From Bacteroidales bacterium (GTDB lineage: Bacteria; Bacteroidota; Bacteroidia; Bacteroidales; F082): a DNA stretch of 64,000 nucleotides. The position numbers were made by a program, and so were the translations under genes. Where the stretch lies: NCBI GenBank assembly GCA_017632935.1, contig JAGBQJ010000001.1, positions 62,001 to 126,000 of the forward strand, read 5' to 3'. The notes beneath the pieces are model-generated. The model was given only the letters and a program-made list of their open reading frames with translations, was not told the origin of the DNA and made no database searches. The stretch's first letter is position 1. The number at the start of each line of letters is the position of its first letter. Positions 17,266 to 42,675 of this stretch are shown piece by piece.

Positions 17266-17856
17266 TTAAGCCATAATAAATGATTGTTGTTTTGGAACCC
17301 TATTCCACCTGCTAACAGTATCTTCTTTATACTCTGAATTGATTGGTGCCATCACAAACCACCAATCAGAAGCATAGTTTTCGTTATCGACCAGAAAAGA
17401 AAGACGGCAAGACCACGCTTCAAGGATTTTGACAATTTTTTCATACTCTTTTCCCTTCAATTGATTCTTGGCCATGTCAACATACATTCGAAAGACATCC
17501 GCATTTTTAATAGTGGCTATCATCCTTCCTATGTTTTTGGTCGGCATTTCACCGTTTTCGTACAGGCCATATTGATTGTCGCCGATACCCAATATCTTCG
17601 ACATGGTTGTCGCCGACAATCCATATTGTTCACGTATGGCCTTGATCTCTGCAGGAGCAGGGATGCCGTATTTTTCCCTATATTGGGAATAAATCTGCTC
17701 AAGGCCCCATGCATCGGTTTCATCATCGGTGAAAGCGATGCCTGTGTCGTCGCAGCGATAATAACGACGAGTATAGTCAAATTCTTCGCCTCGGTAAGTA
17801 GTAGTCGCTTTTTCTTCGACAAGGGTGGCGTGACCACTGGTAAACGGGCTGTTCAT
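17266..17856 (-). CDS. MqsA-family antitoxin with long C-terminal extension
   Basis: A 196-aa antitoxin. The N-terminal part (MNSPFTSGHATLVEEK, TRRYYRCDDTGIAFTDDE) corresponds to the MqsA/YgiT zinc-finger region, but the CPxC pair is absent (SPFTSG occupies the place and one Cys remains). A helix-turn-helix follows at about 78-115 (IREQYGLSATTMSKILGI, then NQYGLYENGEMP). E. coli MqsA is about 131 aa. Here about 50-60 extra residues, rich in aromatics (SDWWFVMAP, SRWNRVPKQQSFIMA), match the idea of a chaperone-addiction segment. The HTH should autoregulate the operon. It overlaps the toxin by 4 nt (ATGA). Confidence 0.85.
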   Translation of the reverse strand: MNSPFTSGHATLVEEKATTTYRGEEFDYTRRYYRCDDTGIAFTDDETDAWGLEQIYSQYREKYGIPAPAEIKAIREQYGLSATTMSKILGIGDNQYGLYENGEMPTKNIGRMIATIKNADVFRMYVDMAKNQLKGKEYEKIVKILEAWSCRLSFLVDNENYASDWWFVMAPINSEYKEDTVSRWNRVPKQQSFIMA

Positions 17857-18233
17857 TGTTTATCCTCCTTTGTTTTTAATGGATAGGTAAGTCTAAATTT
17901 TGCAATATGGAAGGAAATGCACACATTGGGTTGGTTGAGTATGGCATTGATAAAGATCTTGATGTAAACCTCTTGCCCCTTGATTTGTTTGCCGAACACC
18001 CAAACATCGTTTTGTCCAGGATAGTCGTTTTTATCCGGTCCTTGGCAATAATCCTCCGTATCAAGGGACAAAACATAGTTTTTCCTGTCGTTTTGAGTAA
18101 TATCCAATGCGGTTAAAGTGTCGATATTATTCGGTTTGCTATCAACATATACTATGCCGAACAATTGCGCCCTTTCCTTAAACTCCTTCAAAAACGCATT
18201 GACCTCTTCTTTTGTGGCTTGGTTGTTCTTCAT
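17853..18233 (-). CDS. MqsR-like toxin
   Basis: A 126-aa protein whose C-terminal two thirds follow MqsR: an alpha/beta start (NAFLKEFKERAQLFGIVYVD), LTALDITQNDRKNYVLSLDT, then DVWVFGKQIKGQEVYIKIFI, which corresponds to the TGQVYLKITV strand of E. coli MqsR, and a final SFHIAKFRL strand. MqsR is a ribosome-independent mRNA interferase with RelE fold. The active-site Lys, Arg and Tyr cannot be assigned with certainty by eye. It is first in the operon, before the antitoxin, the reverse of most type II systems but typical of mqsRA. A predicted promoter lies just upstream. Confidence 0.8.
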   Translation of the reverse strand: MKNNQATKEEVNAFLKEFKERAQLFGIVYVDSKPNNIDTLTALDITQNDRKNYVLSLDTEDYCQGPDKNDYPGQNDVWVFGKQIKGQEVYIKIFINAILNQPNVCISFHIAKFRLTYPLKTKEDKQ

Positions 18234-19518: not shown

Positions 19519-20919
19519 TCATTTCTTAATAATAATCCAATATCCCTCTTTACGACCTCCTTCGCGAATCAGCAGACCTTTTTCGCGAAGTCGTTTGGTA
19601 TGATAATACACGCCATCGGGTGTCAATCCACACAAACGAGCTAGTTCTTCTGTCGTTACCTTGGGATTCTCTGAAATGAAACCAAGAATCTTTTCCGTAG
19701 TCTTTTCCGTAGTCTTTTCCGTAGTCTTTTCCGTAGACACCGTACTCCCGTGCTGCCTAATCGTAGCATACACCATAAAACCATTCTGCCGATACTCAGG
19801 AGCTGGGCATCCTGCCTCCTCCATCTCACGGTACATACGGTCAACACCTTCGCCAAACTCTTTAACCAACCTATATTCGTGCATATATGCCGCAATCTTG
19901 GGGTTGCGCGAGAAATGCGTGTTGCGGATATTTGCAGGTCTGACCAGTCCCGGAAAGATGCCCGGACTCTCCACCGTGATATGGTCATCGAAAATCTTTA
20001 CTTGAATGTCCGTGCCAAGAATGCTATAGTCGCGATGGCAGATGGCATTCACGCATATCTCTGTCCAACAAAACTCCGGATACTGTTCGTCCGTCTTGAA
20101 CAACCCGTCCGCGCCCAGATAAGTATGCTCCTTCACTTGTGTCCTCACAAATGCCAACGCATTTTGTGCCATTGTACGGATAGGGCCTTCAAACATCTCA
20201 TCCTTGACGACATTCATCTCGCGTCCCACTTTGGCCTCTGTCCCTTCATAGCGGATAACACGCACCCTGGCTCTCGGGAAAAACTTCTGAGGATTCTTGC
20301 CGAACAGCAGCACCGCTGCACCAGTCAAATACTCTTTAGTGGAACCATGAAAATCCTCCACTTGTGCGATAAAACCATTCTCACGAATAAATGCATCCCA
20401 TCCTTTGCGATAGTCGAGCCTCTGAAGATAATCATCTATCAGGCCCTCGTCCAAGTCCTCTTTCTTTGCGTCATGCACCGGGGCATTCTCATAGAAGCGT
20501 TCTCCCTTGGCATACACCAGTTGCATCCGTTGCTCGAAGTTCAGCTTCTTTGATTTGTCACCCACGCGGTAATAAACCTCGTCCGCCTGATTCGCATGCA
20601 CCTTCATGCTGGCAGCAACACGTAGCAGGATGATATGATTCGGTTTCCCCTTGCTATCCGTCACCTCCATGTATTCTGGAGTAGTGGGTATAGAAGGCGC
20701 ACAATAATCATACGAAGCCCTGAGCAGGTCATTCAAATGATTCTGCATACCGTCAACACCAGAAAGTTCACCATCATCCTCAACGCCTAAGGCCACTGTG
20801 CCCCCATCAGCGTTTGCAAACGCAATGAGAACAACAGCCAAGCCCTTGGCATCAATCTTCGCACTCTTTCGGTCGAAGATTTGGAATTCCGTTGTCTTCT
20901 GTATATACTCCAGCGTCAT
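19519..20919 (-). CDS. AlbA_2 / RecG-like ATP-binding regulator
   Basis: A 466-aa protein of the AlbA_2 (Schlafen-like) group often annotated as transcriptional regulator or RecG-like. The N-terminal AlbA_2 domain spans about 1-130 (TEFQIFDRKSAKIDAKGLA, AFANADGGTVALGVEDDG). An HATPase_c_4-like region follows at about 230-400 (ICVNAICHRDYSILGTDIQV, SPGIFPGLV, EFGEGVDRMYREM), then a winged helix at about 415-466 (VTTEELARLCGLTPDGVYYH). A 12-bp tandem repeat encodes KTTE units in the linker. Such proteins occur widely in accessory and defence regions, and a few act in phage defence. Monocistronic. Function not settled. Confidence 0.85.
   Translation of the reverse strand: MTLEYIQKTTEFQIFDRKSAKIDAKGLAVVLIAFANADGGTVALGVEDDGELSGVDGMQNHLNDLLRASYDYCAPSIPTTPEYMEVTDSKGKPNHIILLRVAASMKVHANQADEVYYRVGDKSKKLNFEQRMQLVYAKGERFYENAPVHDAKKEDLDEGLIDDYLQRLDYRKGWDAFIRENGFIAQVEDFHGSTKEYLTGAAVLLFGKNPQKFFPRARVRVIRYEGTEAKVGREMNVVKDEMFEGPIRTMAQNALAFVRTQVKEHTYLGADGLFKTDEQYPEFCWTEICVNAICHRDYSILGTDIQVKIFDDHITVESPGIFPGLVRPANIRNTHFSRNPKIAAYMHEYRLVKEFGEGVDRMYREMEEAGCPAPEYRQNGFMVYATIRQHGSTVSTEKTTEKTTEKTTEKILGFISENPKVTTEELARLCGLTPDGVYYHTKRLREKGLLIREGGRKEGYWIIIKK
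19691..19738. repeat. Four-unit 12-bp tandem repeat
   Basis: TTTTCCGTAGTC repeats four times and encodes TEKTTEKTTEKTTEK between the ATPase-like and winged-helix parts of the AlbA_2 protein. Because 12 is a multiple of 3, unit gain or loss would change linker length without a frameshift. Confidence 0.9.
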
Positions 20920-21329: not shown

Positions 21330-21707
21330 CTATATCTCATCAATATAGCAGAAAGACTGGGGAGCATGAAAGCCCACGATCCTCACGTAAGGGTTCACGG
21401 GGTTCTCGTAATGAATCAGGTTCTTGATTTCTATGGCGTAGCCCTCCGATCGGCCATTGAAATAGCCGTCGAAAAACCGTTTGCTAATGCCAGAGTATTT
21501 CTTGGTTTGCCGCCACATCTGCGAGGGTTCCGATGCCAGAATCTGAGCCACCTCAAACTCCCCTACAATTCTGCTTACCGGTGCAGAGGCGTAGATATAC
21601 ACCTTTTTCACCGGCTGCTTGAAAACGCTCTTCCTGTATTCAAATTTTTTCTTTCCGGCCAGTATTTCCTCCACAAACTGTGGCTTAATCGATAAAATAG
21701 CGTTCAT
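21330..21707 (-). CDS. ASCH/PUA-like domain protein
   Basis: A 125-aa protein with the ASCH opening MNAILSIKPQFVEEILAGKK then KFEYRKS, followed by VKKVYIYASAPVSRIVGEF, the SIxPxxxxxIxxGxKxxExR pattern. ASCH domains have a PUA-like beta-barrel expected to bind RNA or modified bases; several act in translation-linked or defence contexts. The ATG overlaps the 3' end of the GNAT gene by 23 nt. It is the last gene of the five-gene operon beginning with the Mrr-like nuclease at 26924. Confidence 0.8.
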   Translation of the reverse strand: MNAILSIKPQFVEEILAGKKKFEYRKSVFKQPVKKVYIYASAPVSRIVGEFEVAQILASEPSQMWRQTKKYSGISKRFFDGYFNGRSEGYAIEIKNLIHYENPVNPYVRIVGFHAPQSFCYIDEI

Positions 21708-22764
21708 CTGCTTTCCCTAACTTAATGATTTTCTTAAATTGCTCGTCCGTCAGCTGCAGCAGCGACGGACGGGCCTGTGCGTCCAATGCGCCGCCTTCTA
21801 CCAGGTCTTTCCTGATGGCCCGCTTGCTGAAAGCCACGTTATACAGCATCTTTATTACCACCAAGTTCCTTTTCGAGCGAAACCACTGCCGACGGTCACG
21901 CTCGGGAAATACACTATATTGGGTGTAACGCATAAACTCTTCCTCGGTCTTGAAGTCCCACCATTTCTTCACTTCCATCACCGTGCACACCGTGGTCACC
22001 ACAGCACGATACCAAGCCCTGCCGGGTTCATCGGTGGTGCGATAAATCACCACCAGGTCGCCAAACATCATCTGGGCGCATTCGGGATTCCAACTGATGT
22101 AAATCTTATAGATGCCGTTAGTAGGGGTGCAATCCTGTACCATGTCGTAGCTCTCGTTTTTCAGTATCGAGTCGGGAAACAGAGGAGTGTGCCACATCGG
22201 GTAGATACCCAACAGCCATTTCCTCTTACCCTCGGTTTTCATGCGTGGATAGTCTTCCAGCAAATGTCCTTCCACCGCCCTCATATCCTTCACCATCACC
22301 CATTCACTGGTTGCCCCTCGTTCTGAGCTCGTCGAAGGGTGGGGCTTGTCAGCCTTGTGGTTAAACCCGAATCGACCGAACAGATGTATAAGATATTGTA
22401 GTTCCTCGGTCGGAAAGATGGTCACATACACCTCATCCACGTTTTCGGCCATGGCCCTGTCCATGATTTTCTTCATGAAGCGTTCGCCACGGCGCGTGCC
22501 GCGGCTCAGCAACTTGAAGGTGCCCACCTTCAGTCGTTTCTTGGCTGGCAATATAGGAACCACATCGGTCACATCATCCGTTTCTACTTTCAAGTAGAGG
22601 AAATCAGCCACGTGGCCTTCCGCATCGTGAAACACGTAAGCCTCAGCACCTTGGGCAGCTTTCTTCGTGTACCACTCCGAAAATTCCGGGTACGCCGCCT
22701 TCAACGAATCGAAGAACGGATCCGCCAAGTCGATATCTTTGAATGGAGCTAATTGGATGTCCAT
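21685..22764 (-). CDS. GNAT acetyltransferase with C-terminal PUA/EVE-like region
   Basis: A 359-aa two-domain protein. The N-terminal half is GNAT-like: VADFLYLKVE, then KRLKVGTFKLLSRGTRRGER as the acetyl-CoA loop region, then VDEVYVTIFPT and a helix with LFGRFGFNHKAD. The C-terminal half (about 185-330: YPMWHTPLFPDS, MFGDLVVIYRTTDEPG, AWYRAVVTTVCTV) resembles a PUA/EVE-like barrel. Such fusions sit beside ASCH proteins in other Bacteroidota (general knowledge). Substrate unknown; RNA or tRNA is plausible. A repeat-derived peptide, HPSTSSERGATSE, sits between the domains. Fourth gene of the operon, 24 nt after the methylase-like gene. Confidence 0.75.
   Translation of the reverse strand: MDIQLAPFKDIDLADPFFDSLKAAYPEFSEWYTKKAAQGAEAYVFHDAEGHVADFLYLKVETDDVTDVVPILPAKKRLKVGTFKLLSRGTRRGERFMKKIMDRAMAENVDEVYVTIFPTEELQYLIHLFGRFGFNHKADKPHPSTSSERGATSEWVMVKDMRAVEGHLLEDYPRMKTEGKRKWLLGIYPMWHTPLFPDSILKNESYDMVQDCTPTNGIYKIYISWNPECAQMMFGDLVVIYRTTDEPGRAWYRAVVTTVCTVMEVKKWWDFKTEEEFMRYTQYSVFPERDRRQWFRSKRNLVVIKMLYNVAFSKRAIRKDLVEGGALDAQARPSLLQLTDEQFKKIIKLGKADERYFID
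22315..22340 (-). repeat. Palindromic repeat encoding PSTSSERG
   Basis: The minus-strand reading ACCCTTCGACGAGCTCAGAA is a member of the CCCTTCGACAGGCTCAGGG family (also at 12434 and 19219). It lies in frame in the linker of the GNAT/PUA-like protein. Confidence 0.75.
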
Positions 22765-22788
22765 TGTGTTATGATTTATGTTAGAACT

Positions 22789-24444
22789 TTACTCCCTCCC
22801 AAAAAGATTCATATTAAAGTCCTTGCGACCTTCTTCCAATTCTTCCTCTGCTTTTTGGGCTTTATTGATATATTTCTGTAACTCCTTGGCCATTGCCTTT
22901 TGTTCTGCCAGTTCCGGTAAAGGAATCACAACAGACAAGAAATCGCTCATCGACAATCGCGACAAAACGTATGTGCGTTTGTTCATAGCTTGAAGCTGTT
23001 CTAATACAGGGTCACTTGTTAACACCATCATAAGATAGTTCAAATCAACCCTTTTTTTATCGATTTCATATAAATAGAAATCCTTCGTTACCAAAGCGCC
23101 ATCTAATTCTTTTGCAGCAAAGCCCACTCCACCCATATCAGCCTCAAACGAAGAAACAACCAAGTCATTGGGGTGCACCACAAACATTTTCTCTGCAAAT
23201 GCACGGCCATATTCAATGCGCTTTACATCCACTCCCATACCCCTGCGTCTTACTCTTAATACTTTGTACTCTTTGTCGGGCTTTGTCACAGCTTTATTTC
23301 TCCTGAGTGTAAGAATCTCTTTAAGTGTAACGGTAGGGTATTTTTTCCCTATCCCATCACGAAGGAATAAAAGTGTAATGTTCCAATTCTCAACATTTGA
23401 GAAACTAAAAACTTTACAAGAAGCGCTTTCTAATGGGAGCTGGTTTGAATAGACAAACGCACTTACCTGCGAAACAGCATCCTTAATCTCAGATTCAGCC
23501 AAACCGCCTTTGAGCAGTGTAGCACTGCACTGTCTGAAATGCGAATTCCGTCCCGAGTTCTTTAGGAAAATAACCTGAAATGAATTCTTGGAAGAATGTC
23601 CCGAATATGCCACTTCATCAAATCTGGTGATATTTAGAATTTCGGATTTATTCAACATGATTTGTCTGAAGTTTCTTTTGGCACGCTTTTCCATCAAGCC
23701 AGAAGGAACGATGATAGCGGCAATACCATCTGGATTCAGTCTTGTCAGTATTTTCTCGATGAAAATCTCTTCTATTTCCCGATAATCATAGGTGGGCCGC
23801 TCCCAATTAGCGCCAATCTCACTGAGCACTTGCCGTCTTGTTGGAATATGGGCGACTATACAGTCGTATCCTGCAACAGGGACTTCGTTCGCTTTCTTTG
23901 CAAAGTCCTCACAAGTAAATGTGTCTTCGTCGTAGCCATATATCATTAGTGCCAATTTGGTAGTATTCACCATTGTCCGACTGATGTCATTACCATAAAG
24001 CTTAATTTTGCCACTTTTTTGGCAATAAGCTTCAGCCAACGAACCACCTATGCCACAGCAAGGGTCAAAAACACTTTCAATGCCATTTAAGTCTAGCACG
24101 TTGAACACATATTTTGTCAATATGCTTGGCGTTGAATAATCACTGATATTCCCTCCAAAATTCTCTTGGAGAAACTCCGTAAACGCCCGTCCCAGTTCAT
24201 GTTTTTCGCCATAGTCAAAACAATATGGTTCGAGCGAGGTATAGACCTCATCAAATGTTTTGGATTTAATGACTTTTTCGCTCCACCCTGCAAACGAAGA
24301 TAGCGACGCACCTAGTTTTACCACCAACACCTTGCACAATTCTTCTATACAGGCTTCTTGTGAAAGCCTTTCTAACCTCTTAATCGTTGCAAGGCACCGA
24401 TTTAGAGTGTTCCTAAAGTTCTGTATATAATCGTATTCCACCAT
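22789..24444 (-). CDS. N6-adenine methylase-like protein with HsdS-like domain, motif IV degenerate
   Basis: A 551-aa protein. The N-terminal two thirds follow a type I HsdM fold: a helical head, SAM motif I FDPCCGIGGSL (126-136), then GNDISRTMVN and PDGIAAIIVPSGLM. The C-terminal part (about 375-535) looks like one HsdS target-recognition domain (VHPNDLVVSSFEADMGGVGF, LSMSDFLSVVIPLPELAEQK). Motif IV should read NPPY/F after the CIVA strand, but HIPT occurs at 199-202, so adenine methylation is probably lost. The SAM-binding loop is kept. It lies 8 nt after the OLD-type ATPase gene. It may serve as a DNA-recognising sensor rather than a methylase (inference). Confidence 0.8.
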   Translation of the reverse strand: MVEYDYIQNFRNTLNRCLATIKRLERLSQEACIEELCKVLVVKLGASLSSFAGWSEKVIKSKTFDEVYTSLEPYCFDYGEKHELGRAFTEFLQENFGGNISDYSTPSILTKYVFNVLDLNGIESVFDPCCGIGGSLAEAYCQKSGKIKLYGNDISRTMVNTTKLALMIYGYDEDTFTCEDFAKKANEVPVAGYDCIVAHIPTRRQVLSEIGANWERPTYDYREIEEIFIEKILTRLNPDGIAAIIVPSGLMEKRAKRNFRQIMLNKSEILNITRFDEVAYSGHSSKNSFQVIFLKNSGRNSHFRQCSATLLKGGLAESEIKDAVSQVSAFVYSNQLPLESASCKVFSFSNVENWNITLLFLRDGIGKKYPTVTLKEILTLRRNKAVTKPDKEYKVLRVRRRGMGVDVKRIEYGRAFAEKMFVVHPNDLVVSSFEADMGGVGFAAKELDGALVTKDFYLYEIDKKRVDLNYLMMVLTSDPVLEQLQAMNKRTYVLSRLSMSDFLSVVIPLPELAEQKAMAKELQKYINKAQKAEEELEEGRKDFNMNLFGRE

Positions 24445-24452
24445 AGTCTTGT

Positions 24453-26147
24453 TTACAAATCCAACACTTTAATAATTTCCTCCAACAGAGGCCAAAAGCC
24501 CTCATATACTTTAATGTCAAAAGTAGCCTCATGGAAATGATTAAAAATATAATTCTTTATTGCGGTTTCCGCCGCACTCATCCTCTTTATCTCATTGTAT
24601 TTCGGGAATCCCGTAATATTGAAATCCGGTATGTTTTCATCTTTTCCTTTATAGCATGATTCGGGGAAATAGTCTTCCACCAAGAAGTCGTGATTAATCG
24701 TACGGTTATAGATGTTGGCATACAACCTGCTATCAATCTTTCCCCTCAGCTCTTTGTGACTGTCCAAAAAATCATTCAACTTGTTTTGTGCATCCTTTCC
24801 AGCCTGGTCGTTGTCGAAAAGGAAAAGTATCTTATCATAGTAATCGGCGATGGGGAGTAATGAGTTTTCCAAGAAAAAGTCAACACCGCCAGCCCCATTC
24901 ATGCAAAAAGCAGCGGCTTCCTTTTTTAACTTCACCACTTGTGGATACTTTTCTTTTAATCGCTCAACTGCCTGCTGTATATACAAGATGTCGCTCTTCC
25001 CCTCGGTGATGAAGACTTTTTTTCTAAATGAAAACAAAAAGCTATCAAAGAATGTGATGTGCTTGCCCGAAAGATTCCCTACAACATCCGACCACTTCTG
25101 CTTATTTGGGAAACCGTCCATCACCGTTTCCACAGCTTCGGGCTTCATCATACTAGTCATAATTGGCGAGTGGGTCGTCATCAACGTGTATCCTTTTGCC
25201 GAAGCAATTAAGTCAAGGATGTTTTTCTTGGCTGTCACATCCACATGGGCATCAGGTTCATCCAATAGGTACACTGTTTGTTCATCACCCAAAATTCTGG
25301 TCATAAGCATCATCAGTATCCTTTTCTTATGACCTTCGCTAAGGTTCGTCAAAGAGAGTCCCGTATCTGTTTTTATTTCTATTGATCTGACAGCTTTCTT
25401 CATTTTTACCCCCAACTCCTTATTCTCTTCAGGCATTGCGAGCGCATAAAGCAAATAATAGAGTCGTCTGCACTTGGCCAGTTCATCATCACCCACTATA
25501 CCCAGATTGGTAGTTTTGATGGCCCTCATGTAGAGATCTGGTTGTTTCAGAGTTTCCAACAATTGCACTGCATTGGCATCTTTGTAACCTTTAGCGTTTT
25601 CATCTATTTCCACTTCAACTTTGATTCTGTCAAGTGGTATTTCTTTGCCCCATAGTTCCTTGACAAAATCTTTAACCTCATCTTGTTCAGAGCATAGAAG
25701 GGTGATGAGCGCTATAGCCCATTGGTATCTGTTTACGTAAAGTATCGTTGGTTCGTCCACTGCGTTCATTTGTGTGTTTCCGAAGTACTTTACGTAACTA
25801 TGCTTCATGTACTCTTCCCACAAACGATGATCTTCACCGCTATAGCATACTATCAGTCTCTTTGGGAGATCGAAGACTTCTTTGGCTACTTCGTTGGTTC
25901 CGCCTTTAAACAAGAGATTAGTGCCGTCAAATTCAACTTGCTTTTCATCATCCAATCTGAGCTTATAGCTAAATTTTGGGTCTTGCCCTTCAATCAAATG
26001 GCAACAGACTGCGGCAACGGCTTCCACCCAATTACTTTTCCCTGAGCCGTTTTCACCTACCAAAGCCGTGTAGCCATCATCAGAGAAAAACAAACTTCCC
26101 TGTTGAATATTCTTATATTCGTCGATATACAAACTTGTTAGCTTCAT
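24453..26147 (-). CDS. OLD-family ATPase with TOPRIM nuclease domain
   Basis: A 564-aa protein. Its AAA/SMC-type ATPase has Walker A GENGSGKS (31-38), signature LSEGHKK (269-275), Walker B TVYLLDEPDA (291-300) and the switch His326 in TTHS. It is followed by a TOPRIM domain with Glu382 in TEGKSD and the acidic pair Asp445/Asp447 in LFDNDQAG. All key residues are present, so ATPase and metal-dependent nuclease activity are expected. OLD proteins act alone (P2 Old) or as the GajA subunit of Gabija. No GajB-type helicase is present here. Upstream partner: Mrr-like nuclease 21 nt away. Downstream partner: methylase-like protein 8 nt away. Confidence 0.92.
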   Translation of the reverse strand: MKLTSLYIDEYKNIQQGSLFFSDDGYTALVGENGSGKSNWVEAVAAVCCHLIEGQDPKFSYKLRLDDEKQVEFDGTNLLFKGGTNEVAKEVFDLPKRLIVCYSGEDHRLWEEYMKHSYVKYFGNTQMNAVDEPTILYVNRYQWAIALITLLCSEQDEVKDFVKELWGKEIPLDRIKVEVEIDENAKGYKDANAVQLLETLKQPDLYMRAIKTTNLGIVGDDELAKCRRLYYLLYALAMPEENKELGVKMKKAVRSIEIKTDTGLSLTNLSEGHKKRILMMLMTRILGDEQTVYLLDEPDAHVDVTAKKNILDLIASAKGYTLMTTHSPIMTSMMKPEAVETVMDGFPNKQKWSDVVGNLSGKHITFFDSFLFSFRKKVFITEGKSDILYIQQAVERLKEKYPQVVKLKKEAAAFCMNGAGGVDFFLENSLLPIADYYDKILFLFDNDQAGKDAQNKLNDFLDSHKELRGKIDSRLYANIYNRTINHDFLVEDYFPESCYKGKDENIPDFNITGFPKYNEIKRMSAAETAIKNYIFNHFHEATFDIKVYEGFWPLLEEIIKVLDL

Positions 26148-26168
26148 CTTCCGCTTGAATATTGTTTG

Positions 26169-26924
26169 TTATATAGTCAAATAATCTGTAATGTGAGACT
26201 CAAAGCGCATTCTATCAGAATAATCAAACTTCCAGTCTTCAATTGGGTTTTTAGCAAACAGTTCTTCAAACTCTTTGATACCTTGAGACATCACTTTTTT
26301 AAGATAATCAAATAAACTGTTAAAGTCATCAAACTGGAAGCCTTCTATTACAATAGCATCTTTAGGATTATACGCCCCCATTTCCAGACCTCCGATTAAC
26401 ATGTAGTGTGGCAAATATTTATTCTGAAGACTGATATACTGATTCTTTGCGCCATCTGAGAGTTTTTCAACTGGGACATCAAGAATATCCGTATATACCG
26501 ACAGCGGGGCTCCAATCTTTATTATTTCTCGAAATCGGTTCTTCAACCATTTATGAGCAATCATTTCAATAAAGCCGTCCCAATTCTTTAGTATTACATT
26601 TGAGCATTTTGCCGCCTCTATAGCACCTTTCTGATACCCATTCTTTGAAATAAAGATTCCAAACATTGAACCGGAGTCTTGAACAACAGTTCTAAAAGCG
26701 TGTATCTTTTCTTGTGAAACAGGCGCATTCCAATATTTGCATTCACAAACGAACTGTTTCAGCATTTCGTCATCTGTCATTGCAAATACATCAACCTCAA
26801 CCTTGCCTCTCACAAGTTCAATAGTCTTGGCTGTTTCTGCCTGGTACCCTGCTTGGTTCAGGTATTTACAAACCTTGTCTTGCAAGTCTCGCCAATCTGT
26901 AGGTATTTCTTTAGTAATAATCAT
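26169..26924 (-). CDS. Mrr-like PD-(D/E)xK restriction endonuclease
   Basis: A 251-aa protein with an N-terminal Mrr_cat-type nuclease: a helical head (DWRDLQDKVCKYLNQAGYQ), then KVEVDVFA with acidic Asp45, then VCECKYW with Glu61 and Lys63, and a following Gln (Gln71). It continues through GIFISKNGYQKGAIEAAKC, an Mrr/RecB-like helix-strand. The C-terminal about 130 residues are unassigned. Mrr proteins cut methylated or foreign DNA. It is first in the operon with the OLD-type ATPase, and its promoter must lie in 26925-26990. The catalytic triad is intact. Confidence 0.85.
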   Translation of the reverse strand: MIITKEIPTDWRDLQDKVCKYLNQAGYQAETAKTIELVRGKVEVDVFAMTDDEMLKQFVCECKYWNAPVSQEKIHAFRTVVQDSGSMFGIFISKNGYQKGAIEAAKCSNVILKNWDGFIEMIAHKWLKNRFREIIKIGAPLSVYTDILDVPVEKLSDGAKNQYISLQNKYLPHYMLIGGLEMGAYNPKDAIVIEGFQFDDFNSLFDYLKKVMSQGIKEFEELFAKNPIEDWKFDYSDRMRFESHITDYLTI

Positions 26925-27114: not shown

Positions 27115-27210
27115 TCACCTCGTCGTATATCCCCCATCCACCACCAGATTACTCCCCGTCACTCATCTCGAGGCATCGCTCAAGAGATTGATGCAGGCAT
27201 TAGCAACGTC
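27115..27210 (-). pseudogene. 3' remnant of an SDR (ketoreductase) gene
   Basis: The minus strand reads VDVANACINLLSDASR, TGA, VTGSNLVVDGGYTTR and a stop. This is the C-terminal signature of FabG-like SDRs (compare DIANGCIYLLSDAARWVTG in the intact gene at 41932). The TGA replaces the usual TGG tryptophan. Only the last 30 codons remain. Confidence 0.85.
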
Positions 27211-27386
27211 CACGGGCTCCTCCCACCCTCCACCGGGCTGGGTGCGCGGGCCATGGCCGACATGGCGGGGAAGCGCCCGCTTTGTGCGTTGGGTCCGATG
27301 ATGTCGGCCTTGATTCTTCGGTTCATTGACTCGCTTTGCTTCGTCGAATCTTCGATTTCTCATCAAGGAGAAGGAACAAAAACCTT

Positions 27387-27473
27387 CTACCCCTTCATCA
27401 TCCTCCCCACCAGCTTCGTAAGCACCTGCCCTGGGCCGCACTCCACAAACTCCGTCATGCCGTCGGCGAGCAT
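27387..27473 (-). pseudogene. 3' remnant of a FabD (acyltransferase) gene
   Basis: The minus strand reads MLADGMTEFVECGPG, QVLTKLVGRMMKG and then TAG (27387-27389), the C-terminal FabD motif (compare VTEFYECGTDDTLQKIVKRM in the intact gene at 45939). Only about 28 codons survive. They lie against the toxin gene's 3' end. Confidence 0.85.
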
Positions 27474-27476
27474 CAA

Positions 27477-27800
27477 TCATTCACGTTCTGCCAACACTTC
27501 CTCAATTCTGGAATCATCACGCCGATTATTCCAAAAAGAAAGCACGAAAATCGTTTCATTATCGTGACAATAAATGATTGACGAATTCCGCATCCGAAAA
27601 ATCCTCACTTCGTTTCCTTTAAAGAGAAGATCCTTATACCGCATTCCCATCTCTGGAAACTGTGTCAACCTTTGGACACAATCTTTTGACTCAGCATACA
27701 AGCCTTCGGACGCTCGTTCCCCAAACTCACGAAACACATAATCTACGGTCTCGTTTAATTCCGCTTGTGCCTCTTCAAGCCATTTATGCCTTAAAGCCAT
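27477..27800 (-). CDS. ParE/RelE-type toxin
   Basis: A 107-aa toxin from the ATG at 27800 (MALRHKWLEEAQAELNETVD). The frame is open further upstream, but this start overlaps the antitoxin by 17 nt and removes an unconserved leader. The ParE/RelE layout is present: an N-terminal helical hairpin, RLTQFPEMGMRYKDLLFKG, then EVRIFRMRNSSIIYCHDNET and VLSFWNNRRD. ParE toxins poison gyrase and RelE toxins cleave mRNA. The ending WNNRRDDSRI is closer to ParE-type plasmid-stabilisation proteins. Second gene of the pair, downstream of the antitoxin. Confidence 0.85.
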   Translation of the reverse strand: MALRHKWLEEAQAELNETVDYVFREFGERASEGLYAESKDCVQRLTQFPEMGMRYKDLLFKGNEVRIFRMRNSSIIYCHDNETIFVLSFWNNRRDDSRIEEVLAERE

Positions 27801-28068
27801 AACGGGATTGGATTTGTGCGAACACCTCATCACCATCAACGAGCTTGGCAGTACCGTCCTCCAGGCTTTGAAGGCGCTGCTTTACGATGGCGTACATTTC
27901 CTCATCGGTGTAAGAGCAAGGTGGAACAAGGCGTTTTTCCGTAGCAACCTGGATAAGAGCCGCCTCAAGCTGCTGTTCCAACCAGGCTTGCAACGCCTCG
28001 TCATCAGGAAAGATAGGTCTCACCTGTTCTATCAGCGTATCGTTGATTTTTATTGTCCTCGTGCACAT
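27784..28068 (-). CDS. Antitoxin of the ParE-type pair
   Basis: A 94-aa protein. The N-terminus (MCTRTIKINDTLIEQVRPIF) has a short strand then a helix, as in ribbon-helix-helix antitoxins. The middle is acidic and helical (DDEALQAWLEQQLEAALIQV). The C-terminal part (DGDEVFAQIQSRYGF) fits a toxin-binding tail. It precedes the toxin with a 17-nt overlap, the normal order. A predicted promoter lies just upstream, and autoregulation by the pair is expected from the family. Confidence 0.8.
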   Translation of the reverse strand: MCTRTIKINDTLIEQVRPIFPDDEALQAWLEQQLEAALIQVATEKRLVPPCSYTDEEMYAIVKQRLQSLEDGTAKLVDGDEVFAQIQSRYGFKA

Positions 28069-28189: not shown

Positions 28190-30037
28190 TTACAAATTAT
28201 GCAACTTGGCATCGCTAACCGCCAAATACCTTCCGTCGCCCAAAGACACATGATAATAGAGTTGCCTGACCGTGCGACGATCCATGATCTTCTTTAAAGT
28301 CACAGGAGCCAAGTCGGTTCCTTTAGTAAAACCTTGCAGCTTTTCATCAGCTGCAGCCATGACAATCTCTAACATGTAGTCCCTTAAGTGATAATCAATG
28401 CAGAAATAATCCCCAATCTTGATGTATGCATCAAAATCCTCCAATTTGACCATAGCCTCAAAACTAAAATCAAAGTAGCTCAGTCGATTGGCTGAATCAG
28501 AGAAATTGATATCAAAAACAAAGCGCGCAGTTGAAGTCCCTCGGTCAAGCAGGCAAACCATCTTTCTATAATTCACAGAAACCTGCAGGAGGTCTTCCGT
28601 TGTAACCGGAAACGACGACCTACGTTCGAACAACACGTTGGACACGGCTTCCACCGAGATACCTTCTGGCGAAAATGACGGAAAGACCTCTTCTTCTACA
28701 TCTTTTTTGGGTTTTTGATAACGCATAAACACGGGATCGGTCTTGGGTGGAATTTGAACACGCGGGTCACCCGGGAGCACTTCCCACATGCTCCAAGGCG
28801 AAGCCAACGTAAACTCCGAAGCATCTTCCACTTGCCACCGGCCACCATAAGGACTGATAAACTTCGCCAAATGGTCTATTATAGCATCATAAGATTTGAA
28901 TCGGCCTTTATCTACATCCACTTCTGGTAAAACAAACAAAAAAACGGCATCCAGTATATGAACTATCGCCGTGCAATAAGGTTCGGTGCCCGAATGCATA
29001 CTCAAAAACAGGTCAACCGTGGGTTGGCTTATGCTCTCGCGGTCATAGGTGGCCAAATATGGAGGCAGCTCGCTATCCAAAACCGAACCATTTATCCATC
29101 CTATCGTCTCGCCGAAGTGAACCATTTCATCCGTGGGCAGCAAGTCGATCACTATTTTACAAAGTGATTTGTATATCCCTTGATGAGTGACGGTTTCCGT
29201 CGTCTCCAGTTTCACCACATTTGGTTGACTCAAATCTTTGCCTTTCAGCAGACCATCGTCTTCTATGTATAATATGGCTTGATTGTTTTTATCCCCTCGT
29301 ATGACAAAACCCCTGCCGTCGACCGAAGGCACCATCCCGTCAGTCTTCGTCAAAATGCCGCCCATCGCACGTCTGATATCCAAATAGTGCGTCAAATTAC
29401 TCTCCAACTTTGACAGTCTGTGGTTGCACTTGTCACACTCCTCATTGCAAAACAACAATTTATTGCCCAGTCCCTCAGAAACAGCATGAGCCACATCCTT
29501 AAAGGTAACTTCTGGCATCTTTCGACCACAGAAACGGCACACTCTCTTGGCTTTGTTACCCTCCCCAACCGCCGTGCGAATGCCATCATAACCAAAAGCA
29601 AAATGCCTATAACCGGTTGACAAGGCTCCCCATTTCAACAAATACGATTTGTGGATGACACTTTCATCCTCGCCTGTCTCCAGCCCCTTTGTCTTCAAGA
29701 CAGCCAACTGTTTATTCATTGTAGGAGCATCCTCCGAAACGATTCTAAACACATCGCCATCTTGGAGCGCGTTGAGATAGGCCATTAGCTGTTTTACACG
29801 CGGAAATGCAGGAGCGACTTCAGATTCTAACATAGAACAAAACGACGACGATGCCCCGCTTTTAAACACAAACTCGCCCGTAAAAGGGCTACCCTCCACA
29901 CACATTTTCGTTGCCGACAAACCTGCCAACACTTTATCGAAGATGTCATCAGTCAGTGACGACAAGTCTATTCGCTCTATTTTTCTTCGTAGCGAATAAA
30001 GCAATAGGGTTTTCGATGCAAATTCAAATGGGTTCAT
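28190..30037 (-). CDS. Large HNH-type nuclease-like protein
   Basis: A 615-aa protein with one recognisable module: RVCRFCGRKMPEVTFKDVAH (Cys167, Cys170, His184), then LLFCNEECDKCNHRLSKLES (Cys201, Cys204, Asn205, His206). This is the zinc-HNH pattern of HNH_5-type endonucleases. The rest is not recognised: about 160 residues before it, and about 390 after it rich in beta strands and containing a DRRTVRQLYYHVSLGDG end. No membrane segment. It stands alone between the ParE-type pair and the Septu-like operon, which suggests a single-gene defence nuclease (inference). The codons are AT-rich like its neighbours. Confidence 0.7.
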   Translation of the reverse strand: MNPFEFASKTLLLYSLRRKIERIDLSSLTDDIFDKVLAGLSATKMCVEGSPFTGEFVFKSGASSSFCSMLESEVAPAFPRVKQLMAYLNALQDGDVFRIVSEDAPTMNKQLAVLKTKGLETGEDESVIHKSYLLKWGALSTGYRHFAFGYDGIRTAVGEGNKAKRVCRFCGRKMPEVTFKDVAHAVSEGLGNKLLFCNEECDKCNHRLSKLESNLTHYLDIRRAMGGILTKTDGMVPSVDGRGFVIRGDKNNQAILYIEDDGLLKGKDLSQPNVVKLETTETVTHQGIYKSLCKIVIDLLPTDEMVHFGETIGWINGSVLDSELPPYLATYDRESISQPTVDLFLSMHSGTEPYCTAIVHILDAVFLFVLPEVDVDKGRFKSYDAIIDHLAKFISPYGGRWQVEDASEFTLASPWSMWEVLPGDPRVQIPPKTDPVFMRYQKPKKDVEEEVFPSFSPEGISVEAVSNVLFERRSSFPVTTEDLLQVSVNYRKMVCLLDRGTSTARFVFDINFSDSANRLSYFDFSFEAMVKLEDFDAYIKIGDYFCIDYHLRDYMLEIVMAAADEKLQGFTKGTDLAPVTLKKIMDRRTVRQLYYHVSLGDGRYLAVSDAKLHNL

Positions 30038-30164: not shown

Positions 30165-31016
30165 CTATATTCTGTTATAAAACCAGTGATACAATAAGAA
30201 AGTTTTCCAGTAATCATCTTTCATGAATTTGCAAAGAATCTTGGAGTCCGCCTCCGACTGGTCCTCTTTCTTAAATAACACTGTCATCAAAATCTTTGAC
30301 CGGAGGTTTCTGTCGCCTACACAAGTTACCAAAACCTCATAATTCTCACTGGCAAGCAGACGCCACAACTTCCTGATATCCTTCAGGTTCTGGCAGTTCA
30401 ATCTCGTGTGCACGATGGTCTGACGGTACTCGTCAGGATAGGCACAGTTGGCGTTGGGCTGCATTGTGCCATCCTCCATATAGGTGATTTCATCCCTAAC
30501 ACTCGCGATATAGAACATTGGATACACAAAATCATTCCCTCGTTTGTGGTTACAACACTGGGACGTCCCATTTTTGTCCGGAAATGTCCCATCGCAAGAG
30601 GCCATAAGGTTTTCAAACGTCACCGTATGCGGACATGGCGGTATGGCTATGTTTTGTACACCTGTAAAGTCTGCGGTTCGTATTAATTCCGCGTCTGTCA
30701 GTGAATGCACACCCAAAGCAGTATATCTGCCAAACTCTTCAGCAGAAGCACTTTGTGGTATGACATGCTCCAACGTTACCTGTTGATTTTGATAGCTCAA
30801 ATCCCTCATGCAATAACAGCAGTAGTTGTCCTGCGAGGCCAATGCCAATCGCAGTATTGCATCTTTTGCGCCCGAATCACCAAAGTTTCCGTCGTAGTCA
30901 ACGTTTTGATAATGATAGCTTCCATTTGCATCGTCTATACGGCAATGGCTGTTCAGATAGTCATCTGTAATGCTGTGTCCAGCTTGGATAAGTGCATCCT
31001 TATCGACGTAGTTCAT
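30165..31016 (-). CDS. HNH nuclease subunit of a Septu-like system (PtuB-like)
   Basis: From the ATG at 31016 (MNYVDKDALIQ) the protein is 283 aa. The frame is open back to 31073, but the nearer start gives a 17-nt overlap with the ATPase stop. HNH features: NYCCYCMRDLS (zinc Cys pair), VTLEHVIPQSAS (catalytic His), FENLMASCDG, and CCNHKRGND (Cys pair, His, Asn region). This order matches the HNH component of Septu and similar ATPase-HNH systems, which cleaves DNA or RNA after activation by the ATPase. It is translationally coupled to the ATPase. The residues look complete. Confidence 0.8.
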   Translation of the reverse strand: MNYVDKDALIQAGHSITDDYLNSHCRIDDANGSYHYQNVDYDGNFGDSGAKDAILRLALASQDNYCCYCMRDLSYQNQQVTLEHVIPQSASAEEFGRYTALGVHSLTDAELIRTADFTGVQNIAIPPCPHTVTFENLMASCDGTFPDKNGTSQCCNHKRGNDFVYPMFYIASVRDEITYMEDGTMQPNANCAYPDEYRQTIVHTRLNCQNLKDIRKLWRLLASENYEVLVTCVGDRNLRSKILMTVLFKKEDQSEADSKILCKFMKDDYWKTFLLYHWFYNRI

Positions 31017-32388
31017 TGCCCATATCCTTTCTGCGTTCGGCAAGAAGCTTATCCAGGTGGCTTTCGTCACCATTGAGTTTTTCCAACAGCAGTGCCCTCA
31101 CATTTCTTGATTGTTCAGCCATACCACCTTGTTCAAAGAAAGCGAGTGTATTCAGCAGGTTGTCAATCTCAACATTTCGAGCATCCACGCCCATTATATC
31201 CTCCACGCTAGTATTATAGTCTAAACCATAGACATCTCCTACAACCGTGGGCTGCTTGTTCTCTTCCATCCGGATGATGCGGCTTTCACCATTGCTGACC
31301 TCTAAATTAGAGATAACCATTGCTGAATGTGTGGAAACGATGAACTGCACCTTGGGAAATGTCTTGTGGAGCACGTTCATGACATCCTTCTCCAATTCAG
31401 GATGCAAATGCAGGTCTATTTCGTCTATGATGACAACACCTTCTGGCTCAACATCCTGATTCAAGACATAGGCCCGATAGGCCATATCAAACACGATGGA
31501 ATACAAACGGCGATAACCTGCAGGCAAGTTTTCAAGCAAGGCATCCGAGCCGTCTTTGAAGTGCAGTCGCATCCGATAGCCGCTATTGGTCTGCGCAGAA
31601 CTGAAGTAATCAATTTCCTTACCCTGATCTTTGATGCCCGGAAGACGGGACACAAAATCTTTCAAACGACTCTCAACAAATTCTATCTCCGCCATTGGAG
31701 CTGCCGTGATACTATTAATTCTTTCTATTTCTTTTTCATTGTTTTCCGAGACTGCCCTCGACATTAGGGTATAGAAAGGTTGCACACGGTTAATGCAGTT
31801 GCAAATACGAATCTCCCAAATGGAAGTGCAAGCCGCTTCATCGTCCCATTGATAGTATCCGAAGTTGCGAGGCAACACTCCATTGTTTACCTTGTCAAGG
31901 ACTTTCTTTACGACATTTGCATTGATATGAGGATATGAATCAGAATAATACGCCAACAAAGGGAGTGGCGCGCCATTCACTTTCCATTCGTGCATAAAAG
32001 ATGCAAAAGCCTCTTTGTAATATCGTTGGTATAATGCGGCATTTGTCTGATTTCTCCTATATAGTTTCCATGCCAAATCCACATCACCGTATGAAGCATC
32101 AGCCTTGATGCTTGCATCTTTAACTGCCTCCCTCGTTTTGAAGTCAAAGCGATAATCTTCCTCCTTAAAGCCACGAACATTCAGGGTATTATTACCTTGC
32201 GAAAGAAACTCTTTACCCAGCGAACGGTCATTGGAGAAGATAAAGCTCAGGGCTTTGTGTATGCCATGAACCAATGTGGTCTTGCCTGCACCATTCCTGC
32301 CAATCAACACATTCACGCCCGAAGAGAACTGGCATTTGAAATGTTCAAAGCACCTGAAGTCCTTTATTTCAATTTCGTTAAGTCTCAT
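31000..32388 (-). CDS. AAA/SMC-type ATPase of a Septu-like system (PtuA-like)
   Basis: A 462-aa ATPase with N-terminal FRCFEHFKCQFSSGVNVLIG, Walker A GRNGAGKTT (30-38), LPAGYRRLYSIVFDMA as the signature-like region, Walker B GVVIIDEIDLHLHPE and the switch His in VSTHSAMV. This is the compact OLD/RecF-like ATPase paired with HNH proteins in Septu. It lacks the TOPRIM domain that the OLD protein at 24453 carries. The C-terminus (KLLAERRKDMGNEL) overlaps the HNH gene. A possible -7 box TATTTTTG lies at 32442-32449 on the minus strand without a clear -33 element. Confidence 0.85.
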   Translation of the reverse strand: MRLNEIEIKDFRCFEHFKCQFSSGVNVLIGRNGAGKTTLVHGIHKALSFIFSNDRSLGKEFLSQGNNTLNVRGFKEEDYRFDFKTREAVKDASIKADASYGDVDLAWKLYRRNQTNAALYQRYYKEAFASFMHEWKVNGAPLPLLAYYSDSYPHINANVVKKVLDKVNNGVLPRNFGYYQWDDEAACTSIWEIRICNCINRVQPFYTLMSRAVSENNEKEIERINSITAAPMAEIEFVESRLKDFVSRLPGIKDQGKEIDYFSSAQTNSGYRMRLHFKDGSDALLENLPAGYRRLYSIVFDMAYRAYVLNQDVEPEGVVIIDEIDLHLHPELEKDVMNVLHKTFPKVQFIVSTHSAMVISNLEVSNGESRIIRMEENKQPTVVGDVYGLDYNTSVEDIMGVDARNVEIDNLLNTLAFFEQGGMAEQSRNVRALLLEKLNGDESHLDKLLAERRKDMGNELRR

Positions 32389-41273: not shown

Positions 41274-41957
41274 TTAGTGTTTTTCAAAATAACTGATATA
41301 AAACTGTTTCATTTCAAATAACATGAAGCAATCCCCATGTCCCGGAAACACAATAGTTTTCTCTGGAAATTTCGAAAAAATCGTATCAATAGTTTGCCTT
41401 AATTCAGTTTTAGAAGCACCATATCTCTTTTTCAGCACAGGTTTAGTGTCCTTAATCATTGTATCACCCGTAAAAAGATAATTTTCAAAATAGACACACA
41501 TACCTTTGTCAGTATGCCCTTTGGCTTCAAAAAAACGAATGGGGTAATCGTCCAATGTTAGGGACATATCATGATCCTCAACAAGATAGTCAACATTACG
41601 AATACTATAAGTCGTTTCGTCGTTGTAATACAATTTGTTGAAGTAATTCAGTTCTTGAGCGACCCATTTTGCAGTTTTTACTGTAGAAACAACCAAAGCG
41701 TTAGGAAAATATGATTTCAAATAGTTTGTGCCCCAACAATGGTCAAAATGTTCATGAGTAAGAATAATAAACTGTAAACATAAACCTTTATTAACTATAT
41801 AGTCCTTCAATTCCGTTTGTTCTTTAGAACCCGGATCTATGACGATACAGTTTTCGCTCCTATTCCCAATTAGAAGATAAGCATTAGAAGAGACTGGTTT
41901 GTTAATAAACCTAATCACTTCAATAGTACCGTTATTGCAAAGTATATCCACCGTCAA
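41274..41957 (-). CDS. Metallo-beta-lactamase-fold hydrolase
   Basis: A 227-aa glyoxalase-II-like hydrolase: NAYLLIGNRSENCIVIDPGS, the zinc signature ILTHEHFDHCWG, EAKGHTDKGMCVYFENYLFT (His of motif 3), GDTMI, and GHGDCFMLFE near the end. Such enzymes hydrolyse thioesters. Within an ACP/KAS gene set it may be an acyl-thioesterase or proofreading hydrolase (inference). Its start overlaps the SDR gene by 26 nt. Confidence 0.85.
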   Translation of the reverse strand: MTVDILCNNGTIEVIRFINKPVSSNAYLLIGNRSENCIVIDPGSKEQTELKDYIVNKGLCLQFIILTHEHFDHCWGTNYLKSYFPNALVVSTVKTAKWVAQELNYFNKLYYNDETTYSIRNVDYLVEDHDMSLTLDDYPIRFFEAKGHTDKGMCVYFENYLFTGDTMIKDTKPVLKKRYGASKTELRQTIDTIFSKFPEKTIVFPGHGDCFMLFEMKQFYISYFEKH

Positions 41958-42675
41958 TTGTAAAAATACTTCCAGTCACCCAACGAGCAGCATCCGAAAG
42001 CAAGTAAATACATCCGTTAGCAATATCAGAAGGTGTCCCAAAACCCAGCGGATGGCGTTCGGCATAGAACTTCAGGAAAGCATCCTCTTCAATGGCACCG
42101 CTGCTCAATATGCTCGACGGCACAAAGCCAGGCTGAATGCAATTTACACGCATCTCCTGCTTCGACACCTCCAAAGCCATAGCCTTGGCAAATGAGTTGA
42201 CCGCACCCTTGGTGGCCGAATATAGCGAATTGCCCACCTTCACGTTGAATGTGGAGACCGATGAGATGAACACCACTGATCCACCATGATTCAACTTCTT
42301 CTTCTTCAACAGACGGCTGCAAATCTTGATGTCGCCCATGATGTTGGCGTTGAAAATCTCGGTCATAGCCTCTTCACTGATGTTCTTCACGGGCATGGTC
42401 TTGATGATGCCGGCACATAGCACCACACCGTCCATCACGGGCAATTCATCCACCAGCGCGTTTATATCGTCTGTGCTGCACAGGTCGGCCTTATGAATCA
42501 CATGCCCCTCACCTTCCATCTGGGCAAGGGTTTCGTTCAACCGCTCCTCGTTGCGTGCCATCAAGTGGACTTTTGCACCCATCTTTGAGCAGTCGATGCA
42601 GATGCCACGTCCAATGCCTGACGAGGCACCTGTTACCAATATAGTTTTCCCTTCAAGGGAGAATGGATTAAACAT
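41932..42675 (-). CDS. SDR ketoreductase 1 (FabG-like)
   Basis: A 247-aa classical SDR with TGASSGIGRGI near the N-terminus, NADP-binding ARNEERL, FISSVSTFN (catalytic Ser), and YSATKGAVNSFAKAMALEVS (Tyr and Lys). C-terminal end DIANGCIYLLSDAARWVTG. Likely reduces a 3-oxoacyl thioester made by one of the KAS III enzymes. It is 2 nt after KAS III copy 1. The second SDR in this cluster is 249 aa. Confidence 0.88.
   Translation of the reverse strand: MFNPFSLEGKTILVTGASSGIGRGICIDCSKMGAKVHLMARNEERLNETLAQMEGEGHVIHKADLCSTDDINALVDELPVMDGVVLCAGIIKTMPVKNISEEAMTEIFNANIMGDIKICSRLLKKKKLNHGGSVVFISSVSTFNVKVGNSLYSATKGAVNSFAKAMALEVSKQEMRVNCIQPGFVPSSILSSGAIEEDAFLKFYAERHPLGFGTPSDIANGCIYLLSDAARWVTGSIFTIDGGYTLQ

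What the first reader, a model, noticed from the sequence alone, without database searches (positions are those of the whole stretch)
21330..26924. Mrr / OLD-TOPRIM / dead-methylase / GNAT-PUA / ASCH operon: possible undescribed defence system
Five minus-strand genes are packed with gaps or overlaps of -23, 24, 8 and 21 nt: Mrr-like nuclease, OLD ATPase with intact Walker and TOPRIM residues, an HsdM-like protein with an HsdS-type recognition domain but HIPT for NPPY, a GNAT/PUA-like protein and an ASCH protein. Established systems with OLD proteins (Gabija with a GajB helicase, PARIS with a separate TOPRIM protein, stand-alone Old) do not have this set. Inference: the methylase-like protein recognises a DNA state without modifying it and licenses the two nucleases; the last two genes may act on RNA or tRNA.
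Basis: partly seen in the sequence, partly recalled or inferred. Interest (0 to 1): 0.78.

Follow-up and report, generated by a model that had tools for sequence, protein, structure and literature searches.

The report
OLD nuclease with a dead methylase
A bacterium carries a run of probable DNA-defence genes whose core descends from a family in which a DNA-marking enzyme is paired with an OLD-type nuclease, but here the marking enzyme has lost its active site, and a separate, already described toxin-antitoxin-like pair follows in the same run.

Summary
The five genes, their spacing (-23, 24, 8, 21 nt) and the HIPT motif are real, but they are not a conserved five-gene unit. (1) OLD plus the methylase-like gene belong to a recurring family: in 13 of 13 full-length OLD relatives read, an HsdS-type gene sits directly before OLD (fused to M in 3); an N6-methylase precedes it in 12 of 12 with sequence in view, all with NPPF. 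The window OLD groups with five of them (89/96). Its M::S protein is short, with one recognition domain; it keeps the SAM motif and has lost motif IV. (2) The GNAT/ASCH genes are the described GNAT-EVE/ASCH pair (PADLOC PDC-M11; GevT toxin/GevA antitoxin in one phage record), found without window-type OLD or Mrr in 15 of 15 places tested. (3) Mrr relatives stand without OLD in 3 of 3 places read; Mrr may replace a PD-(D/E)XK domain that M has lost. Best reading: a derived M-S-OLD restriction-like system with a pseudo-methylase as sensor, plus an acquired toxin-antitoxin pair. No second copy of this form was found, and remnant decay is not excluded.

The parts
26169..26924 (-). Mrr-like PD-(D/E)XK protein, 251 aa; D45 and E61-x-K63 present
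   Evidence: Pfam Mrr_cat 9e-14; alignment with three homologues
24453..26147 (-). OLD-type ABC ATPase with C-terminal TOPRIM, 564 aa; GENGSGKS, LSEGHK, LLDEP, EGKSD, DNDQAG
   Evidence: groups with M-S-OLD relatives
22789..24444 (-). Fused, shortened HsdM-HsdS-like protein (M::S), 551 aa; motif I DPCCGIGG kept, motif IV NPPF replaced by HIPT, one TRD (about 368-530), no HSDR_N_2 domain found
21685..22764 (-). GNAT-EVE protein, 359 aa (PADLOC PDC-M11A; homologue of GevT, annotated as toxin)
   Evidence: PADLOC 4.1e-121; 42.1% identity to the GevT place of phage PhiR47_2 by tblastn; alignment of 11
21330..21707 (-). ASCH protein, 125 aa (PADLOC PDC-M11B; homologue of GevA, annotated as antitoxin); 23-nt overlap with GNAT-EVE
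   Evidence: the same 23-nt overlap in 8 of 14 pairs measured

Best explanation
OLD and M::S form a derived member of an M-S-OLD restriction-like family. In ordinary members M-S should methylate adenine at its own sites (M keeps NPPF) and the OLD ATPase-TOPRIM protein should be the nuclease that takes the place of HsdR (inferred from domains and gene order, not assayed). In the window M::S has lost methyl transfer and the N-terminal nuclease-like domain but keeps a SAM-binding motif and one target-recognition domain. I infer that it acts as a reader of sequence or methylation state that holds or releases the OLD nuclease, and that the separate Mrr-like protein supplies the PD-(D/E)XK activity found at the N-terminus of M in most relatives. 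Host DNA would be spared by another cellular methylase or because the system fires only on a phage cue. The GNAT-EVE/ASCH genes are an acquired toxin-antitoxin-like pair that keeps the run in the genome or acts as a second, growth-stopping layer. Shown: gene content, the OLD/S/M pairing in relatives, the loss of motif IV, the occurrence of the last two genes on their own. Inferred: all activities.
For: S directly before OLD in 13 of 13 full-length OLD relatives read, M in 12 of 12 with sequence in view (motifs in 73, 110). All 12 M proteins have NPPF (11, L102), the window HIPT. Window and 13 relatives keep Walker A, DEP, EGxxD and DxDxxG. Window OLD groups with L079, L080, L052, L030, L078 at 89/96. 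M::S keeps 39 of 95 residues invariant in 12 relatives, among them D127, P128, C130, G131, G133 of motif I and D153. Its S part matches 12 distinct S proteins (11 of M-S-OLD loci, 1 of the OLD-less L033) ahead of one other, and its best Specificity model, PDLC03148, is the best model of the 4 relatives' S proteins scanned. Of the 12 M proteins 8 keep D and E-x-K in the N-terminal domain; hhalign aligns that domain with the Mrr set over the D...ECK core (probability 65%, E 5.9e-5 for this one comparison). The host genome has three other N6_Mtase loci, one weak.
Against: No second genome with the dead M::S or the Mrr-OLD-M::S order was found, so conservation of the derived state is unproven. Gene order differs (OLD first here, last in all 13 relatives). 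The window OLD has a long branch (1.67) and its group is below the tool's starred level; the M tree puts the window on a branch of length 10 with an unsettled bootstrap. The best PADLOC model for M::S as a whole is MADS mad2, and for OLD a Septu PtuA model, PDLC00293 (PDLC00293 is also the best for relatives' OLD). The S protein of L030 does not reach 1e-3 with the S part. Three of 12 M proteins have a degenerate N-terminal nuclease motif and L049 lacks the domain, without a window-type Mrr nearby, so the domain may be dispensable and Mrr need not replace it. The library was built from loci fetched by similarity. No structure could be predicted.
Confidence: 0.45

Rival explanations
1. Decaying locus: an M-S-OLD system lost methylation and is drifting towards a pseudogene; the packing with Mrr and the toxin-antitoxin-like pair is the usual crowding of a defence island.
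For: M::S is very diverged (end branch 10 against a median of 0.43) and keeps only 39 of 95 family-invariant residues; Mrr and GNAT-EVE/ASCH occur without OLD elsewhere; the OLD profile finds only G135 among 172 other genomes of the family, and no close M::S relative is among them.
Against: All five frames are open and tightly spaced; OLD keeps all checked catalytic motifs; motif I is largely kept while motif IV is lost; an active OLD nuclease without protection should be selected against (inference).
Confidence: 0.27
2. The five genes act together as a modified-DNA-dependent (type IV-like) system: M::S, EVE and ASCH read modified bases, and Mrr and OLD cut.
For: EVE binds modified bases and ASCH is predicted to (PMC7641849 passages); Mrr_cat domain present; methylation motif lost.
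Against: GNAT-EVE/ASCH occurs without window-type OLD or Mrr in 15 of 15 places and is annotated as toxin-antitoxin in one record; the set does not recur.
Confidence: 0.13
3. It is a MADS-like (methylation-associated defence) locus.
For: PADLOC mad2 is the best model of M::S (3.2e-21), mad5 also hits it (8.8e-11), and mad3 hits OLD (1.5e-21).
Against: NCBIfam MADS2 scores 43.6 bits against a cut-off of 720; no mad model is the best for Mrr, GNAT-EVE or ASCH; OLD has a TOPRIM part beyond the mad3 match.
Confidence: 0.05
4. M::S is an active methylase with an unusual motif IV.
For: SAM motif largely kept.
Against: 12 of 12 relatives have NPPF; in the window the Asn and first Pro are replaced and T follows instead of the aromatic residue.
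Confidence: 0.05

Closest known systems
Type I restriction-modification (HsdM/HsdS)
   Same: M and S homologous; the 3 relatives' M proteins scanned as separate or fused genes and the 2 have PADLOC MTase_I PDLC03018 as best model, the 4 S proteins Specificity_I PDLC03148
   Different: OLD ATPase-TOPRIM follows instead of HsdR; in the window the methylation motif is lost and S is reduced to one TRD fused to M
Septu (PtuA/PtuB) beside M-S genes
   Same: L103 and L123 have M-S followed by PtuA-PtuB; L101 has HsdR-Abi-M-S-PtuA-PtuB-Mrr_cat; the window OLD's best PADLOC model is a PtuA model
   Different: the window ATPase carries TOPRIM motifs and has no PtuB beside it
OLD classes 1-3 (Old, Gabija, retron)
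   Same: ABC ATPase plus TOPRIM architecture
   Different: no GajB-type helicase and no reverse transcriptase among the neighbours scanned, not stand-alone; the passages of PMC10568477 that I read name no class tied to HsdM/HsdS, and the term HsdM does not occur in that text
PARIS (AriA/AriB)
   Same: OLD-type ATPase and TOPRIM
   Different: TOPRIM fused to the ATPase here (two-gene make-up of PARIS: passage of PMC12839542)
MADS
   Same: methylase, ATPase and S components, as the PADLOC and NCBIfam model names say
   Different: far below the NCBIfam cut-off; further mad genes not seen in the run
GNAT-EVE/ASCH pair (GevT/GevA; PADLOC PDC-M11)
   Same: genes 4 and 5 match over their length, with the 23-nt overlap seen in many pairs
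   Different: stands at the end of the OLD run; [quoted passage not shown]

Membership tests
M-S-OLD group (defined here) | OLD ATPase-TOPRIM adjacent to an HsdS-type protein | tested here: met
M-S-OLD group (defined here) | order M, S, OLD | tested here: not met
   window has OLD before M::S; all 13 relatives have OLD after S
M-S-OLD group (defined here) | active N6-methylase motif NPPF | tested here: not met
   HIPT
M-S-OLD group (defined here) | OLD sequence groups within the set | tested here: inconclusive
   grouped at 89/96, below the tool's starred level, on a long branch, root drawn at the midpoint
GNAT-EVE/ASCH (PDC-M11, GevT/GevA) | GNAT-EVE protein with an overlapping or adjacent ASCH gene | tested here: met
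GNAT-EVE/ASCH (PDC-M11, GevT/GevA) | toxicity neutralised by the ASCH protein | not testable with these tools
   only the annotation of one record and a prediction
Gabija | GajB (UvrD/PcrA/Rep-like) helicase beside the OLD gene | tested here: not met
   neighbours are Mrr and M::S; no such helicase among 19 window proteins scanned with Pfam
PARIS | separate AriB TOPRIM gene | tested here: not met
   TOPRIM motifs lie in the OLD protein
Septu | PtuB HNH gene beside the ATPase | tested here: not met
   the PtuA/PtuB pair is another locus at 30165-32388
MADS | MAD2 at family cut-off | tested here: not met
   43.6 bits against 720
Type I RM | HsdR translocase-nuclease in the locus | tested here: not met
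   none among 19 window proteins scanned with Pfam; rest of the genome not searched for HsdR
Type IV Mrr restriction | Mrr_cat domain | tested here: met
Type IV Mrr restriction | cleavage of modified DNA | not testable with these tools
   needs an assay

The most novel reading that the evidence does not exclude
A restriction-like system whose methylase has become a non-catalytic sensor of DNA or methylation state: an M-S-OLD system that stopped marking self DNA and now uses a pseudo-methylase to gate an OLD-TOPRIM nuclease, with its lost nuclease domain replaced by a stand-alone Mrr.
Probability: 0.25. Interest if true: 0.72.

Novelty: new variant of a known kind. Interest (0 to 1): 0.5.

Why it matters
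The M-S-OLD pairing ties OLD nucleases, whose recognition step is poorly understood, to a methylation-based self/non-self module, and the OLD review passages I read do not name it. The window adds a natural experiment: the same effector with a methylase that very probably cannot mark self, which makes the question of how OLD effectors tell self from foreign directly testable. It also shows how a GNAT-EVE/ASCH pair can stand at the end of a defence run and look like part of it.

Tried and rejected
Five-gene conserved unit: rejected. Frameshift artefact at motif IV: no other frame gives NPPY. Viral contigs with single window proteins (M::S, GNAT-EVE, OLD, Mrr): no relatives. Phage records: no match for OLD or Mrr, 2 partial ones for M::S. 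Solved structures: for OLD the listing is of ATPases of other systems (retron Ec83 ATPase first; PtuA, AriA and an OLD-family entry, 6p74, lower down), for M::S six HsdM/HsdS-type chains, for GNAT-EVE nothing significant. A second draw from the order (M::S) gave 1 of 281 other genomes, the L079 one.

Limits of what was read. Of 13 viral loci I read L102 and L103. Of 19 I read 13; L115 and L118 lie on the contigs of L103 and L102; L129 and L131-L133 were not read. Of 40 plasmid records with a Mrr match I read 2, and the one genome. Of 31 plasmid records with a GNAT-EVE match I fetched 10, of 16 phage records 1, and of 6 genomes the wider surroundings of 4. Of the 23 other genomes with an M::S match I read only G135 and G095; the rest match over the M part only, in frames the size of ordinary HsdM. 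Dropped before counting: L033 (G095; M-S without OLD), L101 and L103 (no TOPRIM seen), and the second OLD-like gene of L051.

Papers. Seen as passages: PMC7641849, PMC12839542, PMC10853773, PMC10568477; otherwise listings only. Searches for PDC-M11 and for the MADS gene names found no paper; GevA/GevT gave 10,526 papers, of which the 10 listed are unrelated; OLD with HsdM/HsdS or specificity subunits gave listings in which I saw no M-S-OLD system. The ABC-ATPase classification cited in PMC12839542 for RM-like ABC systems is not held under the identifier that I tried from memory, so an earlier description there cannot be excluded. What I say of MADS rests on model names alone.

Full report
Observation. 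The five ORFs, their strand and spacings are as described. Pfam and PADLOC assign Mrr_cat, an OLD-type ATPase with a weak Toprim match, an N6_Mtase plus Methylase_S protein, a PDC-M11A protein with a weak EVE match, and an ASCH protein matching PDC-M11B. Motif IV of the methylase-like protein reads HIPT, and the other two frames there give no NPPY. The stretch has lower GC than the flank at 1-16 kb.

The OLD/M::S half belongs to a family. Searching 394 other genomes of the phylum with the window OLD gave 2 hits at E <= 1e-25; a profile gave 1 of 172 other genomes of the family and 5 of 392 of the order, one of them seen before. With a Flammeovirga plasmid, four long matches from the species genomes and one viral contig, I read 13 loci with full-length OLD relatives: L030, L031, L032, L046, L049-L052, L077-L080 and L102. 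In 13 of 13 an HsdS-type protein lies directly before OLD; in three (L032, L050, L077) it is fused to M. In 12 of 12 with the sequence in view an N6-methylase precedes or is fused to it; in L078 the contig ends 44 nt beyond the S frame. Twelve of 12 M proteins have NPPF (11, L102). The window and the 13 relatives keep Walker A, DEP, EGxxD and DxDxxG (the window's DEP is read because the pattern first met another DEP); the ABC signature pattern was not matched in L050. Window-type Mrr, GNAT-EVE or ASCH is present in 0 of 13 of these stretches (5.6 to 21.8 kb, tblastn E <= 1e-3).

The window form is derived. Its OLD is about 25-33% identical to the others and groups with L079, L080, L052, L030 and L078 at 89/96, below the tool's starred level, on a long branch; the tree holds 12 relatives, without L102, and is rooted at the midpoint. 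Its M::S protein keeps 39 of 95 residues invariant in the 12 relatives, among them most of the core of motif I and D153, but at motif IV the Asn and first Pro are replaced and T follows. Its end branch is 10 against a median of 0.43, with an unsettled bootstrap, so its exact placement is unsure. By phmmer its S part matches 12 distinct S proteins, 11 of M-S-OLD loci and one of L033 (which has no OLD), ahead of a single other at 5e-6; the S protein of L030 does not reach 1e-3. Its M part matches M-S-OLD methylases first (best L049) and ordinary HsdM proteins close behind. That library was built from loci already chosen by similarity, so this is only supportive. As whole proteins the best PADLOC models are mad2 for M::S and PtuA PDLC00293 for OLD. 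OLD comes before M::S in the window and after S in all 13 relatives.

Mrr. Of the 12 M proteins of M-S-OLD loci, 8 keep D and E-x-K in the N-terminal HSDR_N_2-type domain (7, L102; L033 keeps them too), 3 fused ones have a degenerate E-x-K, and L049 has no match to the domain; neither has the window M::S. The stand-alone Mrr has D45 and E61-x-K63, and a profile comparison aligns the two over the catalytic core (65% probability). That Mrr replaces the lost domain is an inference, and L049 shows that the domain can be missing without a window-type Mrr in the 11.9 kb held. Mrr homologues stand without window-type OLD or M::S in 3 of 3 loci read (L068, L069, L088); in L068, whose E-x-K is changed to G-x-K, a short AAA ATPase gene and fragments of an ATPase of another kind follow. 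A different Mrr_cat protein, not matched by the window Mrr at 1e-3, follows HsdR-Abi-M-S-PtuA-PtuB on a Pseudoalteromonas plasmid.

GNAT-EVE/ASCH. [quoted passage not shown] No PIN domain was found in the window protein. A phage record names the pair GevT toxin and GevA antitoxin. In 15 places tested with tblastn the ASCH homologue is present in 15, and window-type OLD or Mrr in 0; an N6-methylase lies near in L045 and L084 by blastp, and one is annotated in L099. The 23-nt overlap of the window is found in 8 of 14 pairs measured: 8 of 10 close homologues (L041 has 11 as annotated, L047 a gap of 76) and 0 of 4 longer proteins from the order (26, 71 and 11 nt overlap, and a gap of 5; starts there are my longest-ORF calls). 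The pair differs in GC from OLD and M::S. I therefore treat it as a separate module.

Wider picture. M-S of this family is followed by PtuA-PtuB in L103 and L123. In the 12 further viral loci read neither OLD nor PtuA was seen in the stretch shown; several end early, and in L119 only M is in view. So M-S looks like a modification unit coupled to different nuclease effectors or to none. PMC12839542 (passages) says that coupling of OLD-type ABC ATPases with various nucleases was reported before in RM-like systems and cites a classification that I could not read; the novelty of M-S-OLD itself is therefore uncertain.

Mechanism. Domain content suggests that M-S marks self and OLD cuts unmarked DNA in ordinary members. 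In the window, marking is very probably lost. The most likely role of M::S is a reader that gates OLD; self-protection would come from another methylase (three other N6_Mtase loci in the genome, one weak) or from infection-triggered activation. The main rival is a decaying remnant. None of this was assayed.

Noticed in passing
window 30165-32388: PtuA/PtuB-like (Septu) pair on the minus strand, upstream of the finding; best PADLOC PtuA 1.3e-56 and PtuB 2.9e-19.
   Followed up: no
window 28190-30037: 615-aa protein with a weak HNH_5 match, below Pfam's cut-off, and no PADLOC match.
   Followed up: no
window 27477-28068: ParE-type toxin gene with an overlapping upstream gene that matches an antitoxin family only weakly.
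   Followed up: no
window 17266-18233: Pair with weak MqsA and MqsR matches, both below Pfam's cut-offs.
   Followed up: no
window 19519-20919: Schlafen/AlbA_2 plus RecG-C-terminal-type protein downstream of the run.
   Followed up: no
window 27160-27480, minus strand: Apparent remnant of an SDR dehydrogenase gene between Mrr and ParE, judged by eye from the translation; it resembles part of the gene at 41932-42675.
   Followed up: no
L101 1-10486: Pseudoalteromonas plasmid run HsdR-Abi-HsdM-HsdS-PtuA-PtuB-Mrr_cat.
   Followed up: partly
L103 4404-10012 and L123 9010-14937: M-S followed by PtuA-PtuB in viral contigs.
   Followed up: partly
L051 11841-13979: A second, 712-aa OLD-like gene directly after an M-S-OLD set, with a DUF4357 match near its C-terminus.
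   Followed up: no
L033 7851-13708: M-S pair followed by a putative methyltransferase and another gene, without window-type OLD.
   Followed up: no
L116-L128: M-S pairs with no OLD or PtuA seen beside them in several viral contigs, as if phages carry the modification unit alone.
   Followed up: no
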